Shown here: positions 30,095-38,341 of the stretch, in pieces
Position numbering within the stretch: the stretch's first letter is position 1
How the letters are laid out: the number at the start of each line of letters is the position of its first letter
Assembly: GCF_022227765.1 (NCBI RefSeq)
Contig: NZ_JAJMLZ010000001.1
Coordinates: 434,001-498,000 of the forward strand
Length of the DNA: 64,000 bases
Direction of reading: 5' to 3'
Source of the DNA: Ectothiorhodospira shaposhnikovii
GTDB lineage: Bacteria > Pseudomonadota > Gammaproteobacteria > Ectothiorhodospirales > Ectothiorhodospiraceae
Translations under genes and position numbers: made by a program
Notes under the pieces: generated by a model
Database searches by the model: none
What the model was told of the DNA's origin: nothing
The model's input: only the letters and a program-made list of their open reading frames with translations

Positions 30095-30841
30095 TCAGGG
30101 GGTCTCCAGCTGGAAGGAAATGGTGGTGACTACCCGTACCTTCTTGATTTCAGGGGTGTAGTTATCCAGATCCTCGATGCTGAACAAGCCTTGGGTAGCG
30201 GTGAGGATACCGCCCACCCGGCTGCCGGAATCCTGGGCGAACTGCTCGGCGGCACGGCGTGCGTCCCGGGTGGCTTCGGCCACCATGTCCGGTTTGACCC
30301 GCTCCAGTTCCGTGAACAGGAACTGGGGCCGGTGTTCATAGCTCTGGGTCAAGGCCACGCCCGCGCTCACCAGGGCGCCGGTCTCGCGCATGGCCTGGCT
30401 CACCCGCGGGGCATCATCGCTGCGTACCAGCACCACCACGTCCGCCCCGAATCGGTAGGACGGACGGTGTTCTCCGTAGATGTTCTGTTCCCGGTCGGTA
30501 ATGGTGGGCGGCACGATCCGGATCTGTTCCCTGTCAAACCCCTGGCCGAGCAGAAAGTCGATGACCTGACCGCGCTGGCCGTCGATACCCTGTTGCAGCT
30601 CATCCAGTCGCTGCGCCTGGACCTGGAATACCACCGGCCAGAGAACCAGGTTGGCAGGAATTTCCCGTTCCGACAGGCCCCGTACCGTCACCTGTCGATG
30701 CGCACTGGTGATCTTGTCGGCGGAAGTGGTCATGCCCAGGCGCACCTGGGAGCCCAGCAGGGTCGGACCCAGGATCAGCGCCACGCAGGCCAGGGAGAGG
30801 GCCAGGATGGAAACCAGTAGAAGCGGACGTTCTTTCATCAT
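30095..30841 (-). CDS. SIMPL domain-containing protein (DUF541)
   Basis: A 248-residue protein with an N-terminal signal anchor (LLLVSILALSLACVALILG) and a periplasmic SIMPL/DUF541 domain, recognised by VTVRGLSEREIPANLVLWPV near the start and by DARRAAEQFAQDSGSRVGGI and IKKVRVVTTISFQL at the end. SIMPL proteins are periplasmic or outer-membrane proteins of unclear function, some linked to oxidative stress. The start codon lies about 8 bp from the right-end hairpin of the IscB element and has no good ribosome-binding site, so the insertion may have replaced its native upstream region. Confidence 0.85.
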   Translation of the reverse strand: MMKERPLLLVSILALSLACVALILGPTLLGSQVRLGMTTSADKITSAHRQVTVRGLSEREIPANLVLWPVVFQVQAQRLDELQQGIDGQRGQVIDFLLGQGFDREQIRIVPPTITDREQNIYGEHRPSYRFGADVVVLVRSDDAPRVSQAMRETGALVSAGVALTQSYEHRPQFLFTELERVKPDMVAEATRDARRAAEQFAQDSGSRVGGILTATQGLFSIEDLDNYTPEIKKVRVVTTISFQLETP

Positions 30842-30901
30842 TTTGCGCGAGAAACCCCGGCCTTCAGGGCGGGGAGGGATAGCGCATCGTGCGCAGCACG
30901 A

Positions 30902-32233
30902 TCACGCGGCCCTGGTCGCGTCCTCCTGTGTCGGCTTGGGTTGCAAGGCATAGCCATAGCCATCAGCCCTTTGCAGCAGGCGGCAATGGCGGTGTGAAAT
31001 CCCCTGAACCACACCCTCTCGGGTCTGGATATTGAAACTGCCGGTGGCGCGAATGGCCACCCGGCCCTGATAGGTGCCGGCCTTTTTGCCGGTCGGTACG
31101 TTGGCCTGCACCAAGTCTCCGGTCTGAAAGCCTTTTACCTGTTTTTGTCGCATCAGGTAACCACGGGGAAAGCCAAAGCGATTGAGCCGTGTGCGCTGAT
31201 AACTGCCCCGGCCCGTGGCCCGCACCGTCAAGGTGGGCACGTTCCAGTGAGTGATGGCAGTGACTGGCCCGACACAGGCCGCATCCAGGGCGTGGGTCTT
31301 GGGAATGCCCAATCGCTGTCGGTTGTATTTGGTGCGGCCACCGCTACTGGTGATCACCGGCAGGCCCGTGGCCTGAATCTGTCGGAATAGCGCCCAGCGG
31401 GTGCTGTTGACGGCGGCGGCATCCTTGAGGGGGGCCTTGGCCTGGGCCTCGATCCGTTGCAGGCGCTTGGGATCATCGGCCAGAAACACTTCCACGGGCT
31501 GATTCCCCTTGGCCTGATTGCAATCAGGACAGGCCAGGGTCAGATTGCTGACCCGATCTGACCCGCCCCGACTCCGGGGGTGGATGTGTTCCACCTCCAG
31601 GGGCAGATCCTTGGCTCCGCAGTAGGCGCAGCACCGTTGCCACTTCTCCAGCAGATATTCCCTGACCTCATAACCGTGCAATGTCCCCTGTTGGTATTCA
31701 ACGCCGCTGATTTCTGGATTTTCCATCGCCTGCGTATCGAACCGAACCCGCTCCATGGTGATCCCCGTCACCGGGGCCAGTCGGCACAATCGGTTCACCC
31801 AGGCCATGGTGGTGTCCACGCGATGTTGCAGGCTCGGGGCCAGCCAGCCCGATGGCCGGGTCCGGTTGTGGAATCGGGGCGCCCGGTGGCGCAACTGTCC
31901 CCGGCGCCGCCGACGAAAGGCACGGCGCTGGGTCAATGCATCCTTGATGTGTTGGCCCCGATGCTCGATCTCCATCAGCATCAGTACCTGCTGATGCTCC
32001 GGATCAGCATCATCCTCGCGGATCACCGTGACTCCGGTGGTCTTGCTGCCGGGATCGATCTTGATCTGGATGGGTTGCAGCGCGGATTCCTCTACCGTGC
32101 GATCCTTGAGCCGGATGGTGAACGGACGCATCCGGTGGACCACGGCCCGGCCCCGCTCCAGCAGCAACCGTGCCCGCTTCTCCGAGCAGGGCATCAGGGG
32201 CTTTTTCCTCTTGTCCAGTACCAAAACCGCCAT
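30902..32233 (-). CDS. iscB: IscB RNA-guided endonuclease (OMEGA system, Cas9 ancestor family)
   Basis: A 443-residue protein with the full IscB architecture. The PLMP domain opens the protein (VLDKRKKPLMPCSEKRARLL). RuvC-I follows with D60 in IKIDPGSKTTGVTV, an arginine-rich bridge helix (about 103-124), RuvC-II with E161 in ITMERVRFD, an HNH domain (about 201-245) with CxxC pairs and EVEHIHPRSRGGS (H216), and RuvC-III with H314 and D317 in THALDAACVG. All catalytic residues of both nuclease domains are present. The start was set at the Met of the PLMP domain; an open frame upstream runs through the RNA-coding region and lacks homology. IscB uses an omega RNA to cut DNA next to a target-adjacent motif. 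Confidence 0.95.
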   Translation of the reverse strand: MAVLVLDKRKKPLMPCSEKRARLLLERGRAVVHRMRPFTIRLKDRTVEESALQPIQIKIDPGSKTTGVTVIREDDADPEHQQVLMLMEIEHRGQHIKDALTQRRAFRRRRRGQLRHRAPRFHNRTRPSGWLAPSLQHRVDTTMAWVNRLCRLAPVTGITMERVRFDTQAMENPEISGVEYQQGTLHGYEVREYLLEKWQRCCAYCGAKDLPLEVEHIHPRSRGGSDRVSNLTLACPDCNQAKGNQPVEVFLADDPKRLQRIEAQAKAPLKDAAAVNSTRWALFRQIQATGLPVITSSGGRTKYNRQRLGIPKTHALDAACVGPVTAITHWNVPTLTVRATGRGSYQRTRLNRFGFPRGYLMRQKQVKGFQTGDLVQANVPTGKKAGTYQGRVAIRATGSFNIQTREGVVQGISHRHCRLLQRADGYGYALQPKPTQEDATRAA

Positions 32234-32244
32234 CTCAAATGCTC

Positions 32245-32515
32245 TCAAAACAGAACCCTTACGGGTCCGGTGACGTGGGGCTTTCGCCCCATCTCCCCTC
32301 GGGAATGTCTGCAACCGGCTCCCGCTGACGCGGCGGCTGGAACCTTCGGCGCTTTACCTTTCGCCAGCATGATCCCAGCCTTACAGAGCGGCGGACTGAG
32401 GCAGCATCCGCCGGTGGGTCTTAACGACCTGTTGCAAACGTAGCGGACTTTCACCGCTCTCCCTGGTCAACCCGGCTTGCTCTCACAAGCCCCCGACTTC
32501 AGTCGGGGGTAGTTG
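32245..32515 (-). ncRNA. candidate omega RNA (guide RNA) of IscB
   Basis: In known IscB loci the omega RNA is encoded just upstream of iscB, with its guide reading out of the element end. Here the roughly 270 bp between the element end and the iscB start holds no homologous protein but many hairpins: 32490-32509 (9-bp stem), CGGCGGA/TCCGCCG (32390-32414), GGCG...CGCC near 32349-32365, TGGGGC-TTTC-GCCCCA (32276-32291) and ACCC-TTAC-GGGT (32255-32266). The RNA would be read on the minus strand. The guide would come from the flanking bases near 32515-32535. Exact ends are not determinable by eye. Confidence 0.75.
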
Positions 32516-32653
32516 ACAAAACCATATAAAAAAAGTCCCTTAGAATTTTATCGCACATCCTGTGGTCAGAGTATTCCGGTATCAGGCCGGTTTTTTTCGT
32601 CGTGTGGGTCATGTGACGGCCCATCCACGCCTTGCACTGGGAGGATCAGGATC

Positions 32654-34124: not shown

Positions 34125-34188
34125 GCGGTGTCTCCTGAAGATGAACCCGCACTATACTCATTGGGAGGTCTCCCGCTGCGAGGGTGTC

Positions 34189-35631
34189 ATGGCCTTTTCC
34201 AAATTGAATTATGTCAACGTGGGTCCCCACGGCACGTTCAAGCGTAGCGGGGGATTGCATACGACCCCGCAGGATATCGATGCACTGTTTGAGTATCTCG
34301 CCCGGACCGGCGTGGATAAGCTCGCCGTGCATTTTCATGGTGGGCTCGTGCCGGAGGGGCGGGGGGAGATGATTGCCCGCTCCATGCAGACGGTTTTCGA
34401 GAAGGGCAACGCCCATGGACTGACCTTCATCTGGGAGACAGGACTCGTCGAGACCCTGATGCGAAACGTGACACGGGTGAATCAGACAAGGTTCTTTCAG
34501 AAACTGGTCCGCTACGTCTTCCGTCAGTTGAGCAAACGACTCGGTGGAGACCTTTCGGGCCGAGGCCCCGGGGAACCCATGACGATGTCCGAGATTGAGG
34601 CCGAGCTGTCACGGATCGACAAATTCGAGGCGTTGGAGAGTGCCGCGCGGGGCGGTGCCGATCGGCTTGACGAAGCGGATCTTGAATTTGCGCTGGGTGA
34701 GATGGAGCTGGAGTTTCTGCTGGAGCTTCAAGGCGACACTGATCTTGCGGACGGGGATTTTGATGCGCTTGTCGGGGCGGCGGTACTGGATCCGTCCATT
34801 GCGCATGAATTGCGTGATGAAACCGGGCGCGGGGTTGCGTTGTTCCAGGTGGCCAAGTACCTCGCCAGGATCACTTACCGGGTTCTGAAGCGCTATGTGG
34901 ACAAGCGGGATCATGGTCTGTACCCGACCGTGATCGAGGAAATCCTGCGTGAATTTTACCTGGCCGATTTCGGCGCATGGACATGGGGACGGATGAAGGA
35001 TGTCGCTGCCGAGATGTGGCTACCCAATGGTGCGACCCTCGACGAGAACTCCCATCCCGGGACCTACTTTCTCCACAAGCTCAAGGCGCATCAGGAGCGT
35101 CACCCTGGTTTCAAGGTCGATCTGGTGGGACATAGTGCCGGGTCCATCGCGATTTGTCATATGTTGCATGCCGGCGACGCAGCGGGCGTCCTGCCGGACA
35201 TCCGCGCCATCATCTTTCTCGCCCCCGCCTGTCTGACGCGGCTTTTGCATGATGAAATCATCGCCCACCCCGAGCGTTACGACACTTTCCGGATGTTCAC
35301 CATGGCCGATGCCCTGGAACAGAAGGACCCGCTCGTTCCGGGTGTCTATACACGTTCATTACTCTATTTCATCTCGGGCGTGCTTGAGGACGAGGTCGAT
35401 ACCCCATTGGCGGGCATGGCTCGTTTCTGGAGCGGAACACCCCCCTTCAATGAGGGTTATCTGATGGAGACGGCGCGCTGGCTCCTGGCAGAGACCGAAA
35501 ACCGCGCCGTGCTCTCGAAAACACCCGATGAGGCACTGGAGGGACTTCGTACCACATCGGGCTCCCACGGTGGGTTCGATGATGACGAACCCACCCGGGG
35601 GTCGATCACTCATCTGGTCGCGAAGCCGTAG
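34189..35631 (+). CDS. putative alpha/beta hydrolase, first gene of a caspase cassette
   Basis: A 480-residue protein without a family I can name. The N-terminal part has KLAVHFHGGLVPEGRGEMIA, an HGG oxyanion-type motif, and the second half has the nucleophile elbow VDLVGHSAGSIAICHML with S316, followed by ADIRAIIFLAPACL-like strand. It therefore looks like a lipase/esterase-type hydrolase with an acidic helical insertion (about 135-240). The start is the ATG after GAGGGTGTC. It lies nine bases upstream of the caspase-like gene, so both are surely one transcript. It could be an effector cleaved or activated by the protease; that is inference. Confidence 0.7.
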   Translation: MAFSKLNYVNVGPHGTFKRSGGLHTTPQDIDALFEYLARTGVDKLAVHFHGGLVPEGRGEMIARSMQTVFEKGNAHGLTFIWETGLVETLMRNVTRVNQTRFFQKLVRYVFRQLSKRLGGDLSGRGPGEPMTMSEIEAELSRIDKFEALESAARGGADRLDEADLEFALGEMELEFLLELQGDTDLADGDFDALVGAAVLDPSIAHELRDETGRGVALFQVAKYLARITYRVLKRYVDKRDHGLYPTVIEEILREFYLADFGAWTWGRMKDVAAEMWLPNGATLDENSHPGTYFLHKLKAHQERHPGFKVDLVGHSAGSIAICHMLHAGDAAGVLPDIRAIIFLAPACLTRLLHDEIIAHPERYDTFRMFTMADALEQKDPLVPGVYTRSLLYFISGVLEDEVDTPLAGMARFWSGTPPFNEGYLMETARWLLAETENRAVLSKTPDEALEGLRTTSGSHGGFDDDEPTRGSITHLVAKP

Positions 35632-35640
35632 ATCCGTGCC

Positions 35641-36705
35641 ATGTCGAGTCGCGAGCCGGGAGACTACGCCATTGTGGTTGGCATCGATGCCTATCCGCGC
35701 TATGGCGCTAACGGGCGTCATCTCCGCGGTGCGGTGCGGGATGCAAAACGCTTTTACCAGTGGCTTTTGAATCAGGACACGGGCGGCGGGCTCGATTCCG
35801 ACAATTGTCGCCTGATCACATCGGAACAAAACCCGATGGCGCTCACGCAGACGACGGTGGATCTGGCGCTTGACGATCTGTGGGCGAGAGCCCGGAATGC
35901 CGGGGGCGGGCGGCGGTTCTATTTTTTCTTTTCTGGCCATGGACAGTCGGTCGTGGGTTCGGATGCCACGACCTACGATCAGTCGTTCTGTCTGCCGCAG
36001 TGGTCCCAGACCATGCCCCATGCCGCACTCAATGCCGACAGCTATCCCAGGGTTGTGCAGACCTGCATGCCGTTCCGCGAGATCGTGATGTTTCTTGACT
36101 GCTGCCGTGTTCCAGCGATCAAGGTACGGGCGATGAACAGCTCGGTGGGCTGTCATGCGCCGCTGGAGGGCTTTGAACAAGTGGAATGCATGGCCTATTT
36201 TGCCGCCGAGCCCATGCGGCGCGCCTTCGAGGGCAGTGTGCAGACGGAGGATGATCAAGCGACGGATGTGCACGGCTTTTTTTCCACCGCGCTCATGGAA
36301 GCGTTGCAGAAAGGATCGTCACGCCCCGGGGGCGGCATCGGGGCGGAGGCTCTGTGGCAGTATCTGGAATACCGGGTACCGCAACTGGCCGACGAAAACG
36401 GCCGTCGACAGATACCTCAACGGGTGCCGCTGCGCTTCTCCGATACGGTGGTATTCGGTGCCGCGGGACAGGCTACGGCGCCAGAAGCCGAAAATTTCGA
36501 GATCCGCTTCAGCGCCGCGCGCCAGGGGCCAGTGCGTCTTTTTGACGCATCAGCCACCGAGATGCGTGCCGGGAATCCATCGGAAGCGTCGTGGCGAGTT
36601 CGGCTTGAGCCAGGCGAGACGTATCTGTTGATCGACGAAGGCAGCGGCCAGAGACGTGTCTTCGTTTTCCTCGCCGACATGGAGGGGACCCATGACACCT
36701 TCTGA
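35641..36705 (+). CDS. caspase-fold cysteine protease (peptidase C14 family)
   Basis: A 354-residue protein. Residues about 8-240 form a caspase-like domain: first strand YAIVVGIDAYPRYG, then the catalytic His (H100) in RRFYFFFSGHGQS and the catalytic Cys in IVMFLDCCRVPAI (C154/C155), as in bacterial metacaspase-like proteins. ADVHGFFSTALMEAL-type helices and a final YLEYRVPQLADENGRRQIPQ follow. The C-terminal 80 residues form a predicted beta domain. It overlaps the next gene by 14 bp. Bacterial caspase-like proteases often act in defence or programmed cell death with an adjacent effector gene. Confidence 0.88.
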   Translation: MSSREPGDYAIVVGIDAYPRYGANGRHLRGAVRDAKRFYQWLLNQDTGGGLDSDNCRLITSEQNPMALTQTTVDLALDDLWARARNAGGGRRFYFFFSGHGQSVVGSDATTYDQSFCLPQWSQTMPHAALNADSYPRVVQTCMPFREIVMFLDCCRVPAIKVRAMNSSVGCHAPLEGFEQVECMAYFAAEPMRRAFEGSVQTEDDQATDVHGFFSTALMEALQKGSSRPGGGIGAEALWQYLEYRVPQLADENGRRQIPQRVPLRFSDTVVFGAAGQATAPEAENFEIRFSAARQGPVRLFDASATEMRAGNPSEASWRVRLEPGETYLLIDEGSGQRRVFVFLADMEGTHDTF

Positions 36706-38341
36706 TGACAGCGCCTTGGTGCGTCTTGGACTCAGGGCCCGGAACACCCATACCGGCGATACCGATCACGACACGCGGATCAGCGTTTACGATGGTCACG
36801 GCATGCTGGTCGCACGAGAAGCAGGCCTGCTTTCGGTCACCTTGGCACGGGGTCTTTACACGCTCCGCACCGAGCGATTGGGCGAGATGGGCGAAGATCG
36901 GGTCATCCTGCTTGACCGGGACCTGGAAATGACCCTGTCTTCGCCTCGCCGTCATTCGGCCATGCCCTCGGCGGATACCGCGCATACCCATGAATTTCTG
37001 CAGGCGGTCAGCATGCGCTACAGTCGGGAGTCGAGCTGCGAGGTGCCGGGTGCGCTGGATGATGATCCACGCCTGATGGTTCTGGTGCGGGCCACGGGAG
37101 ACCAGGATCACTCCGACAGCTTCCCCGCCGGGACGCTGTCACTGATCCGCGAAGACGGCAGTGTCGTGACCCGCTTCGAGCCGGAAAATACCCAACGCAA
37201 CCAGCGCGAGGGCTGGGTGGTGTTTTCGGCCCGGCTGCACCCGGGCAACTATATCCTGACCGACATTCACGAAGGCCGCGCCGTCAGTTTGCCGGTTTTG
37301 CTGAACGGTGGTTGGGACACGTTTGTCTTCGTTCCCTTCGAGGGTGTGCCGCAACTGGCAGCCTCCAGTATCGATATGCGAAGACGCGGCGAGGGCTATG
37401 ATCCCGGAGACCGCTTCACGCAGGAGATCGATGCGGCGCTTCAGGGGCTGGGCTCGCGACTGAATCTGCTTTCCGATGTGTTACTGAAGGAGGCCATCTT
37501 CGGCAAGTTCCGGCATCCGTTTCATGGAATGGTCGGGGCTTATGCGCATCTTTTGGGAGGGCGTCGAAGTGAACGGCTGGAGAGGGACATACTGCGCAAT
37601 CTCTGGCATCTGCTCGAAGGTTCCACGGACGTGATTGCCTTGTTGCTGCTGGCACTGGAACGAGAGCCGGACGGGATTCCGGACAGCCTCGGGGAACTCG
37701 ACGCGGTAGCTGGGGAAATCTTCGGTATGAGTATCACGGACCAGTTACCACTCGGTTTCCCGCCGATGCTGCGCAGTGGACTTGATTCCCTGATCCATGC
37801 GAGCGTGAAGCTGCCTGAACTGATTGCACCGAACTCCTGGCTTGAGACGGCGGCAAACGCTTCCTATTCGGAAGGCGCTTGGGCGGTCTGGGAGCAGGTG
37901 GCGGCTATGCCCAGCCAGCAGAAACTCTATTCCGTCGTCAAACGCGCGCTTGCCGGCGCCGGACGACGCGCGGTGCATACGATTTATGCCGACGATCGGA
38001 TCAACAGCATCGTGGGAACCGACAGGGGATTGATTTCGGGCATCGTGGCCGATATCGCCCGTGATCTGAAAGATTATGTGGTCCATGTGGATCCTTCCAT
38101 CATCCAGGGTGACACGAATGTGCGTGAACTGGTGTTGTCCGTGGCCAGGGCGGCCCAGCCCCGCCAGGATTCGCCGCACAACCTGTGCCCGGACAATCGT
38201 ATTCCGGATTGGCTCGTGACCCTCGTGCGGGAGCGGTGCCGGCGGGAGGGCAAGCATTTCGATCCACGCAAGCTTGCCCGCATGGCGGGTGTGCCGCTGA
38301 AATCCGTGGAGCGGGTGATGACTCGTCCTTCAGCCGATTGA
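36692..38341 (+). CDS. uncharacterised protein, third gene of the caspase cassette
   Basis: A 549-residue protein with no recognised domain. Residues about 1-90 and 100-240 look like two beta-sandwich modules (DTRISVYDGHGMLVAREAG; RLMVLVRATGD; GNYILTDIHEGRAVSLPVLL). Residues about 245-480 are predicted helical. The C-terminus (about 525-545, DPRKLARMAGVPLKSVERVM) resembles a helix-turn-helix. The start is the ATG after GGAGGGGACCC, inside the caspase gene. The first beta module resembles the C-terminal beta domain of the caspase protein in pattern, so they may bind each other. It may be a scaffold, sensor or protease substrate. Confidence 0.7.
   Translation: MTPSDDSALVRLGLRARNTHTGDTDHDTRISVYDGHGMLVAREAGLLSVTLARGLYTLRTERLGEMGEDRVILLDRDLEMTLSSPRRHSAMPSADTAHTHEFLQAVSMRYSRESSCEVPGALDDDPRLMVLVRATGDQDHSDSFPAGTLSLIREDGSVVTRFEPENTQRNQREGWVVFSARLHPGNYILTDIHEGRAVSLPVLLNGGWDTFVFVPFEGVPQLAASSIDMRRRGEGYDPGDRFTQEIDAALQGLGSRLNLLSDVLLKEAIFGKFRHPFHGMVGAYAHLLGGRRSERLERDILRNLWHLLEGSTDVIALLLLALEREPDGIPDSLGELDAVAGEIFGMSITDQLPLGFPPMLRSGLDSLIHASVKLPELIAPNSWLETAANASYSEGAWAVWEQVAAMPSQQKLYSVVKRALAGAGRRAVHTIYADDRINSIVGTDRGLISGIVADIARDLKDYVVHVDPSIIQGDTNVRELVLSVARAAQPRQDSPHNLCPDNRIPDWLVTLVRERCRREGKHFDPRKLARMAGVPLKSVERVMTRPSAD

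What the first reader, a model, noticed from the sequence alone, without database searches (positions are those of the whole stretch)
30902..32233. Apparently intact IscB (OMEGA) nuclease
All RuvC (D60, E161, D317) and HNH catalytic positions, the PLMP domain and the arginine-rich bridge helix are present in 443 residues, without stop or frameshift. IscB proteins are the ancestors of Cas9, and compact active members are of wide interest. A copy in this kind of chromosome would be a new member to test.
Basis: partly seen in the sequence, partly recalled or inferred. Interest (0 to 1): 0.75.

Follow-up and report, generated by a model that had tools for sequence, protein, structure and literature searches.

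The report
Intact IscB element before start codons
This is a real, apparently intact small RNA-guided DNA-cutting enzyme (an IscB, a relative of Cas9's ancestor) with its guide RNA in a bacterial chromosome; the enzyme is one more member of a known family, but its mobile element and its relatives often sit exactly in front of the start codon of ordinary genes, which may explain how they are expressed without destroying the host gene.

Summary
The finding is right in substance. On the MINUS strand, 32233→30902 encodes a 443-aa IscB (NCBIfam guided_IscB 472 bits, cut-off 175) with D60/E161/H314/D317 (RuvC) and H216 (HNH). The guide RNA is there: HEARO, 32517-32287, 116.8 bits. It is not isolated: the genome has a second copy at 93% and an ORF-less HEARO element. 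dN/dS is 0.08-0.19 in 15 of 15 pairs of copies.

Comparing copies gave the ends: left 32517, right about 30839, then ATGA. In 64 distinct junctions (35 of them halomonads) the element abuts ATGA; that ATG opens an ORF of at least 80 aa in 52 of 64, and 36 of 40 of these scanned without choice carry Pfam domains. Start-like sites are 28 of 44, against 24.7% of non-gene-breaking control ATGA. An empty glgC site shows exact insertion without duplication.

Verdict: new member of a known kind; the start-codon placement is the interesting part. Cleavage, expression and transposase are untested. In the window 65-73 nt of the host leader, with its ribosome-binding site, are missing.

The parts
30902..32233 (-). 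iscB: 443-aa RNA-guided endonuclease, ATG at 32233; D60, E161, H314, D317 (RuvC), H216 (HNH)
   Evidence: residue equivalence to OgeuIscB from passages of PMC9640706 and the alignments (drawn for its close relatives 11hx and 11hr)
32287..32517 (-). omega RNA scaffold (HEARO RNA, RF02033), 5' of iscB
   Evidence: 116.8 bits, gathering score 83, model 1-211/211; 304 nt fold with z -4.25
32518..32537 (-). host flank that would supply the guide (20 nt taken here; the real length is inferred, not shown)
   Evidence: its last 16 nt match the empty allele in one relative 16 of 16 (13 of 16 in another), followed there by ATGAAA
30839..32517 (-). whole element, about 1679 nt; left end GTCAAC at 32517, right end ...GCGCAAAATG at about 30839
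   Evidence: similarity of other copies begins at 32517 (three of them 1-7 nt further out) and ends at 30830-30838, with unrelated flanks
30855..30874 (-). right-end hairpin CCCCGCCCTGAAGGCCGGGG
   Evidence: recurs in copies; seen by eye, not scored
30835..30838 (-). ATGA next to the right end: presumed target-adjacent motif, overlapping the start of the host gene
   Evidence: ATGA in 64 of 64 junctions kept, G before it in 63; the search pattern itself asked for ATGA or GTGA nearby
30095..30841 (-). host gene directly downstream: SIMPL-domain (DUF541) protein, 248 aa
   Evidence: PF04402 2.1e-15; 92-94% identical in two relatives

Best explanation
The window holds a complete, probably active OMEGA element: an IscB nuclease gene preceded by its omega RNA, inside a mobile element that has no transposase gene of its own. 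SHOWN by sequence: intact nuclease, intact omega RNA, common ends, many copies at different sites, purifying selection, and, for an ORF-less relative in the same genome, exact insertion without target duplication. INFERRED: (1) IscB with the omega RNA cuts DNA that matches the guide and is followed by ATGA(A); (2) the guide is the host sequence just outside the left end, so an allele that lacks the element is a target, and cutting it helps to keep or copy the element; (3) a Y1 transposase acting in trans moves it; (4) the ATGA is often the start codon plus one base of a host gene, so the element lands between promoter (often also ribosome-binding site) and start codon, in the right orientation for the host promoter to transcribe guide, omega RNA and iscB. 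In some lineages host translation may be restored by a ribosome-binding site in the right end or by iscB's stop codon overlapping the host ATG.
For: Family: guided_IscB 472.2 bits. Omega RNA: RF02033, 116.8 bits. Fold: IsrB Z 23.6 over 303 residues, OgeuIscB entries Z about 22 over 290-297 residues. Constraint: dN/dS 0.08-0.19 in 15 of 15 pairs. Mobility: copies with common ends and unrelated flanks. Empty glgC site: the last 16 nt before the ORF-less element are identical in two relatives and followed by ATGAAA. Start codons: ORF of at least 80 aa from the ATG in 52 of 64 junctions against 31.4% of non-gene-breaking control ATGA; start-like 28 of 44 against 24.7%. 36 of 40 such ORFs scanned without choice carry Pfam domains. 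Ribosome-binding-site core in the left flank in 18 of 44 against 11.7% of control ATGA.
Against: No cleavage, expression or transposition data. The one full Y1 gene of the genome shows no match to the element's ends, and one Vreelandella genome with at least three copies gives no Y1 match: the mover is unknown. In the window the two flanks come from two ATGA sites 65-73 nt apart in relatives and the host ribosome-binding site is lost. 12 of 64 junctions, the second copy of this genome among them, open no ORF of 80 aa. At recA the ATGA lies 18 nt upstream of the real start. In 26 annotated plasmid records the next gene starts with ATGA exactly at a recognisable right end in 10. The right end of the window type shows no ribosome-binding site.
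Confidence: 0.75

Rival explanations
1. An ordinary IscB with an ATGA-like motif; the start-codon placement is only survivorship, because insertions elsewhere break genes and are lost.
For: Crude ORF calls cover 93% of the 400 kb examined, so insertions inside genes would mostly be lost. ATGA is common at gene starts and in stop-start overlaps (passages of PMC10666635). Some copies stand before no gene.
Against: Against ATGA sites that break no called gene, start-like junctions are still 28 of 44 (64%) versus 24.7%, binomial 5e-8. Splitting a start codon from its ribosome-binding site should itself be costly, yet it is seen at alaS, argS and dnaN. The control is one genome while junctions come from several genera (19 of 64 from one species), so the size and significance of the excess are uncertain.
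Confidence: 0.4
2. A catalytically dead or decaying relic, kept by chance.
For: Internally deleted copies exist in the genus; the window copy has a rearranged flank.
Against: No stop or frameshift, all catalytic residues, full-length omega RNA match, dN/dS 0.14-0.15 to the closest copies.
Confidence: 0.1
3. A domesticated regulator: IscB and the ORF-less omega RNAs bind host 5' leaders to control genes rather than to cut.
For: ORF-less omega RNA elements stand in front of glgC and other genes; each guide would be a host leader.
Against: The nuclease residues are intact and the protein constrained; in an occupied allele the guide match and the ATGA are separated by the element, so the guide points at the empty allele; the glgC and SIMPL sites are empty in the relatives compared.
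Confidence: 0.07

Closest known systems
OgeuIscB (PDB 7xht, 8csz, 7utn, 8ctl)
   Same: PLMP, RuvC with D/E/H/D, bridge helix, HNH and C-terminal fold; omega RNA 5' of the gene; its NNRR motif (passage of PMC9640706) is compatible with ATGA
   Different: 26-27% identity in the structural alignments; 443 versus 496 aa; the motif next to the natural right end here is ATGA(A)
TbaIscB (PDB 9k30)
   Same: Best sequence match among solved structures (2.7e-49)
   Different: Not examined further
HEARO RNA / HEARO ORF (Rfam RF02033; PMC9755519)
   Same: The omega RNA is a full-length HEARO match; PMC9755519 (sections 9-11) places HEARO ORFs and IscB in one family, only rarely near TnpA
   Different: Nothing that excludes membership; placement before start codons was not mentioned in the sections and passages seen, and 'start codon' does not occur in that text
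IS200/IS605 family elements
   Same: End hairpins, no target duplication at glgC, fixed tetranucleotide at one end; 41 nt at 88% identity to this right end next to a Y1 gene of a relative
   Different: No tnpA in the element

Membership tests
IscB | Curated family model above cut-off | tested here: met
   NF040563 472.2 bits, cut-off 175
IscB | RuvC catalytic residues D, E, H, D | tested here: met
   D60, E161, H314, D317; H314 and D317 invariant, D60 and E161 at least 90% in 25 sequences
IscB | HNH domain with catalytic H (separates it from IsrB) | tested here: met
   Pfam HNH 53.6 bits at 202-245; H216, N230, N239 invariant
IscB | PLMP motif and arginine-rich bridge helix | tested here: met
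   PLMP at 12-15; Pfam RRXRR 242.8 bits
IscB | Omega RNA directly 5' of the gene | tested here: met
   RF02033 at 32517-32287, 53 nt before the ATG
IscB | IscB fold | tested here: met
   AlphaFold2 model, mean pLDDT 76.6, pTM 0.67; the first ten rows are IsrB and IscB entries, Z 18.0-23.6
IscB | RNA-guided double-strand cleavage with a target-adjacent motif | not testable with these tools
   needs an enzyme assay
IS200/IS605 element | Insertion without target duplication at a fixed short motif | tested here: met
   empty glgC site of the ORF-less relative; ATGA in 64 of 64 junctions kept. For the window copy itself the site is rearranged
IS200/IS605 element | Own Y1 transposase (tnpA) | tested here: not met
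   Y1 matches of the genome lie on other contigs; only a few HEARO nucleases are near TnpA according to PMC9755519
Cas9 | Curated Cas9 family model above cut-off | tested here: not met
   TIGR01865 27.5 bits, cut-off 100; NF049971 (Cas9d) 44.2 bits, cut-off 375

The most novel reading that the evidence does not exclude
A branch of IscB/HEARO elements uses the start codon itself as its landing mark: the motif ATGA(A) is read as 'start codon plus one or two bases', so each insertion falls into the leader of an expressed gene in the transcribed orientation. The host promoter then makes the guide, which must come from outside the element, and host translation is handed on by a ribosome-binding site in the right end (ORF-less Ectothiorhodospira elements, some cyanobacterial and Deinococcus copies) or by iscB ending on the host ATGA (9 of the 14 Burkholderiales loci held).
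Probability: 0.42. Interest if true: 0.65.

Novelty: new member of a known kind. Interest (0 to 1): 0.45.

Why it matters
As a nuclease it is one more compact IscB with a clean natural omega RNA and a predicted target motif, so it can be tested at once. The more general point is the placement. IscB guides are encoded outside the element, so something outside must transcribe them. If the recognised motif is tuned to start codons, that would explain how transposase-less OMEGA elements are expressed, why they spare the host, and how they persist as many copies in genomes such as that of Vreelandella rituensis. It would also offer a way to predict natural motifs of uncharacterised IscBs from genomes alone.

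Tried and rejected
Rejected: IsrB (HNH present); Cas9 (below cut-offs; CRISPR arrays were not searched for); pseudogene (intact and constrained). The element's ends were compared with 20 of the 43 Y1 matches of seven genomes: right-end matches in L218, L225 and L233 (three relatives) and a 14-15-nt match in the own-genome fragment L104, none at the own full-length gene L103; a look at L218 showed no shared complete ends. A promoter scan found one match in the flank, no better than shuffles. The wish to call every junction a true start was dropped after recA and L139, whose ORF looks, by eye, like the inside of a response regulator.

Counting notes; 72 loci with a C-terminal match, 65 with the right-end pattern; one duplicate dropped, 64 kept. 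The pattern asks for ATGA or GTGA within 2-13 nt of a CGCG-like tail, so ATGA is partly by construction; the nearly fixed distance and the G before it (63 of 64) are not. 44 of the 64 had a left end found; one of these (L011) was set 20 nt too far out (compare). 35 of 64 are halomonads, 19 of 64 one species: sites are distinct, lineages are not independent. Controls: 2598 ATGA and 3481 ATGA in 400 kb of one own-genome contig, with crude ORF calls. ATGAA: 45 of 64, against 103 of 355 start-like and 872 of 3481 control ATGA. Of the 52 long ORFs, 40 were scanned without choice (four without a hit), nine more with glgC were picked by me, and three (L074, L147, L149) were not scanned. Pfam hits alone do not prove a true start; no Pfam control on random ATGA ORFs was run. 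ORF-less elements: 11 loci looked at, out of 26 HEARO matches in the two genomes. Plasmids: 71 records matched, 40 were listed, 28 fetched, 26 annotated. ATGA start exactly at a recognisable right end in 10 (three are one insertion); L210 starts with ATGG and L247 has no recognisable right end, and neither is counted. Distant right ends were judged by eye. Nearer relatives (L197-L207): 7 of 11.

Literature: PMC9755519 (sections 9-11 and passages), PMC9640706, PMC10666635 and PMC13180657 (passages); all others search listings only. The 2021 OMEGA paper, the 2009 HEARO paper, the 2015 ISC paper and the 2023 paper on selfish spread are not held. I recall, from no call, that the HEARO paper named ATGA or GTGA as integration site; whether it spoke of start codons I do not know. 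That start-codon placement is unreported rests only on searches, whose listings I saw.

Full report
What is there. The ORF lies on the minus strand, 32233 to 30902, 443 codons from ATG, without interruption. It matches Pfam RRXRR and HNH, NCBIfam guided_IscB at 472.2 bits against a cut-off of 175, and solved IscB structures. By the alignments and the residues given in PMC9640706 (passages) they correspond to OgeuIscB D61, E193, H247, H340, D343. In an alignment of 25 relatives H216, N230, N239, H314 and D317 are invariant, D60 and E161 at least 90%. A predicted structure (mean pLDDT 76.6) aligns best to IsrB and IscB entries: 8dmb Z 23.6, rmsd 4.1, 303 residues; OgeuIscB entries Z 21.6-22.0, rmsd 4.4-5.0, 290-297 residues; Foldseek's first ten rows are also IscB and IsrB.

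The guide RNA. Rfam finds a full-length HEARO RNA at 32517-32287, minus strand, 116.8 bits against a gathering score of 83, 53 nt before the iscB ATG. The stretch from 20 nt outside the left end to the gene folds with z -4.25, none of 100 shuffles as well.

How common it is. The same genome has a second intact copy at 93% and a third HEARO RNA for which no iscB match was found. Among the 57 other genomes, full-length copies of 88-94% lie in two of the same genus (G003, G007). The genome collection gave 68 loci, many from halomonads, Marinobacter and Burkholderiales. dN/dS between intact copies is 0.08-0.19 in 15 of 15 pairs chosen, 0.14 between the two copies of this genome, so the protein is being kept.

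Ends and target. Other copies share sequence with the window from 32517 to about 30835; flanks differ. The left end is GTCAAC, the HEARO start. At the right end a hairpin and a short GCGCAAAA-like tail are followed by ATGA. Of 72 loci with a C-terminal match, 65 had the right-end pattern, and 64 distinct ones were kept. All 64 have ATGA, 63 a G before it, 45 an A after it. The pattern asked for ATGA or GTGA nearby, so the nearly fixed position rather than the mere presence is the evidence. ATGA fits the NNRR motif of OgeuIscB (PMC9640706).

Empty sites. For the ORF-less element before glgC, two relatives lacking it read ...GTCCGGGAAAGTCAGC directly followed by ATGAAA, and the element sits exactly between the two, with no duplication. 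For the window copy the left flank ends at one ATGA and the right flank starts at another, which in two relatives lie 73 and 65-68 nt apart; the stretch between, with the AAGGAG in front of the SIMPL gene, is absent in the window. Recombination between two neighbouring insertions would explain this, but that is a guess. The last 16 nt of the left flank equal the empty allele of one relative and match 13 of 16 in the other, each followed by ATGAAA, as a guide-and-motif model predicts.

Start codons. The ATG of the junction opens an ORF of at least 80 aa in 52 of 64 cases. Where the left end was found, 28 of 44 are start-like (such an ORF and no alternative start more than 20 codons upstream in the rejoined site), against 10.2% of all ATGA and 24.7% of ATGA sites that break no called gene in 400 kb of the own genome (binomial 5e-8 against the latter). 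Of 40 ORFs scanned without choice, 36 carry Pfam domains, among them complete DnaN, dTDP-sugar epimerase, YicC, acyl carrier protein phosphodiesterase and TraE. Ten chosen by me (nine of the 52 and glgC) gave NCBIfam matches for nine, mostly aligned from the first residues, among them AlaS, ArgS, ProC, GalE and GlgC; the tenth is the SIMPL protein of the window. Ribosome-binding-site cores lie in the left flank in 18 of 44, and in 14 of the 28 start-like ones, against 11.7% of control ATGA and 23% of start-like control sites. In 26 annotated plasmid records the next gene starts with ATGA exactly at a recognisable right end in 10, three of which are one insertion.

Results that do not fit. Twelve of 64 junctions open no ORF of 80 aa, among them the second copy of this genome (ORF of 4 aa) and L146. 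At recA the ATGA lies 18 nt before the real start and before its ribosome-binding site. Several cyanobacterial plasmid copies stand before no gene or before one on the other strand. So the claim is a strong tendency, not a rule, and survivorship explains part of it.

Translation hand-over (suggestive). Nine of eleven ORF-less elements looked at read GGAGAG just before the junction ATGA, and some cyanobacterial and Deinococcus plasmid copies have GGAG or GGAGG there. Of 14 Burkholderiales loci held (L030, L034, L036, L040, L043, L048, L052, L201, L202, L204, L205, L208, L209, L215), nine end iscB on the junction ATGA itself, five by 4-nt and four by 1-nt overlaps, the overlaps that PMC10666635 treats under termination-reinitiation (passages). 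These loci are related, and two of three frames give an overlap, so this is weak evidence of adaptation. The right end of the window type shows neither feature.

Transposase. There is no Y1 gene in the element. The genome has one full Y1 gene, beside a TnpB-like ORF (named by eye), and a fragment. A relative has a Y1 gene followed by 41 nt at 88% identity to this right end. One Vreelandella genome with at least three copies shows no Y1 match. The mover stays unknown.

Judgement. The placement before start codons is what deserves a second look. I found no statement of it in the searches listed under Tried and rejected, but the key older papers are not held.

Noticed in passing
G000:C22:62260-62670 (L131 4261-4671): ORF-less HEARO element of 411 nt directly before the glgC start codon in the same genome; ten related ORF-less loci in E. 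magna were looked at, several before genes that look like trkA, pckA and prlC (named by eye from the translations; glgC by NCBIfam).
   Followed up: partly
window 32517 and 30838: The two flanks of the window copy come from two ATGA sites 65-73 nt apart in relatives, so a piece of the SIMPL leader with its ribosome-binding site is gone.
   Followed up: partly
window 34168-38341, +: A caspase-domain (Peptidase_C14) protein at 35641-36705 lies between a 487-aa protein without Pfam match and a 561-aa ORF (36656-38341, not scanned); it could be a defence-like set.
   Followed up: no
L135, L141, L149 (E. magna; L051 and L060 are the same as L135 and L141) and L148 (= L069, E. shaposhnikovii): Internally deleted iscB copies that keep the right end; the three of E. 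magna also keep the left end and omega RNA, L148 does not. Likely non-autonomous derivatives.
   Followed up: partly
L212 (Deinococcus sp. plasmid): iscB sits between parA and a ParB-family gene that starts exactly at the right end.
   Followed up: no
Vreelandella rituensis (G058; 22 loci): Twenty-two iscB loci in one draft genome, some cut by contig ends; eight elements compared differ from each other by 5-11%, which suggests long retention rather than a recent burst.
   Followed up: partly
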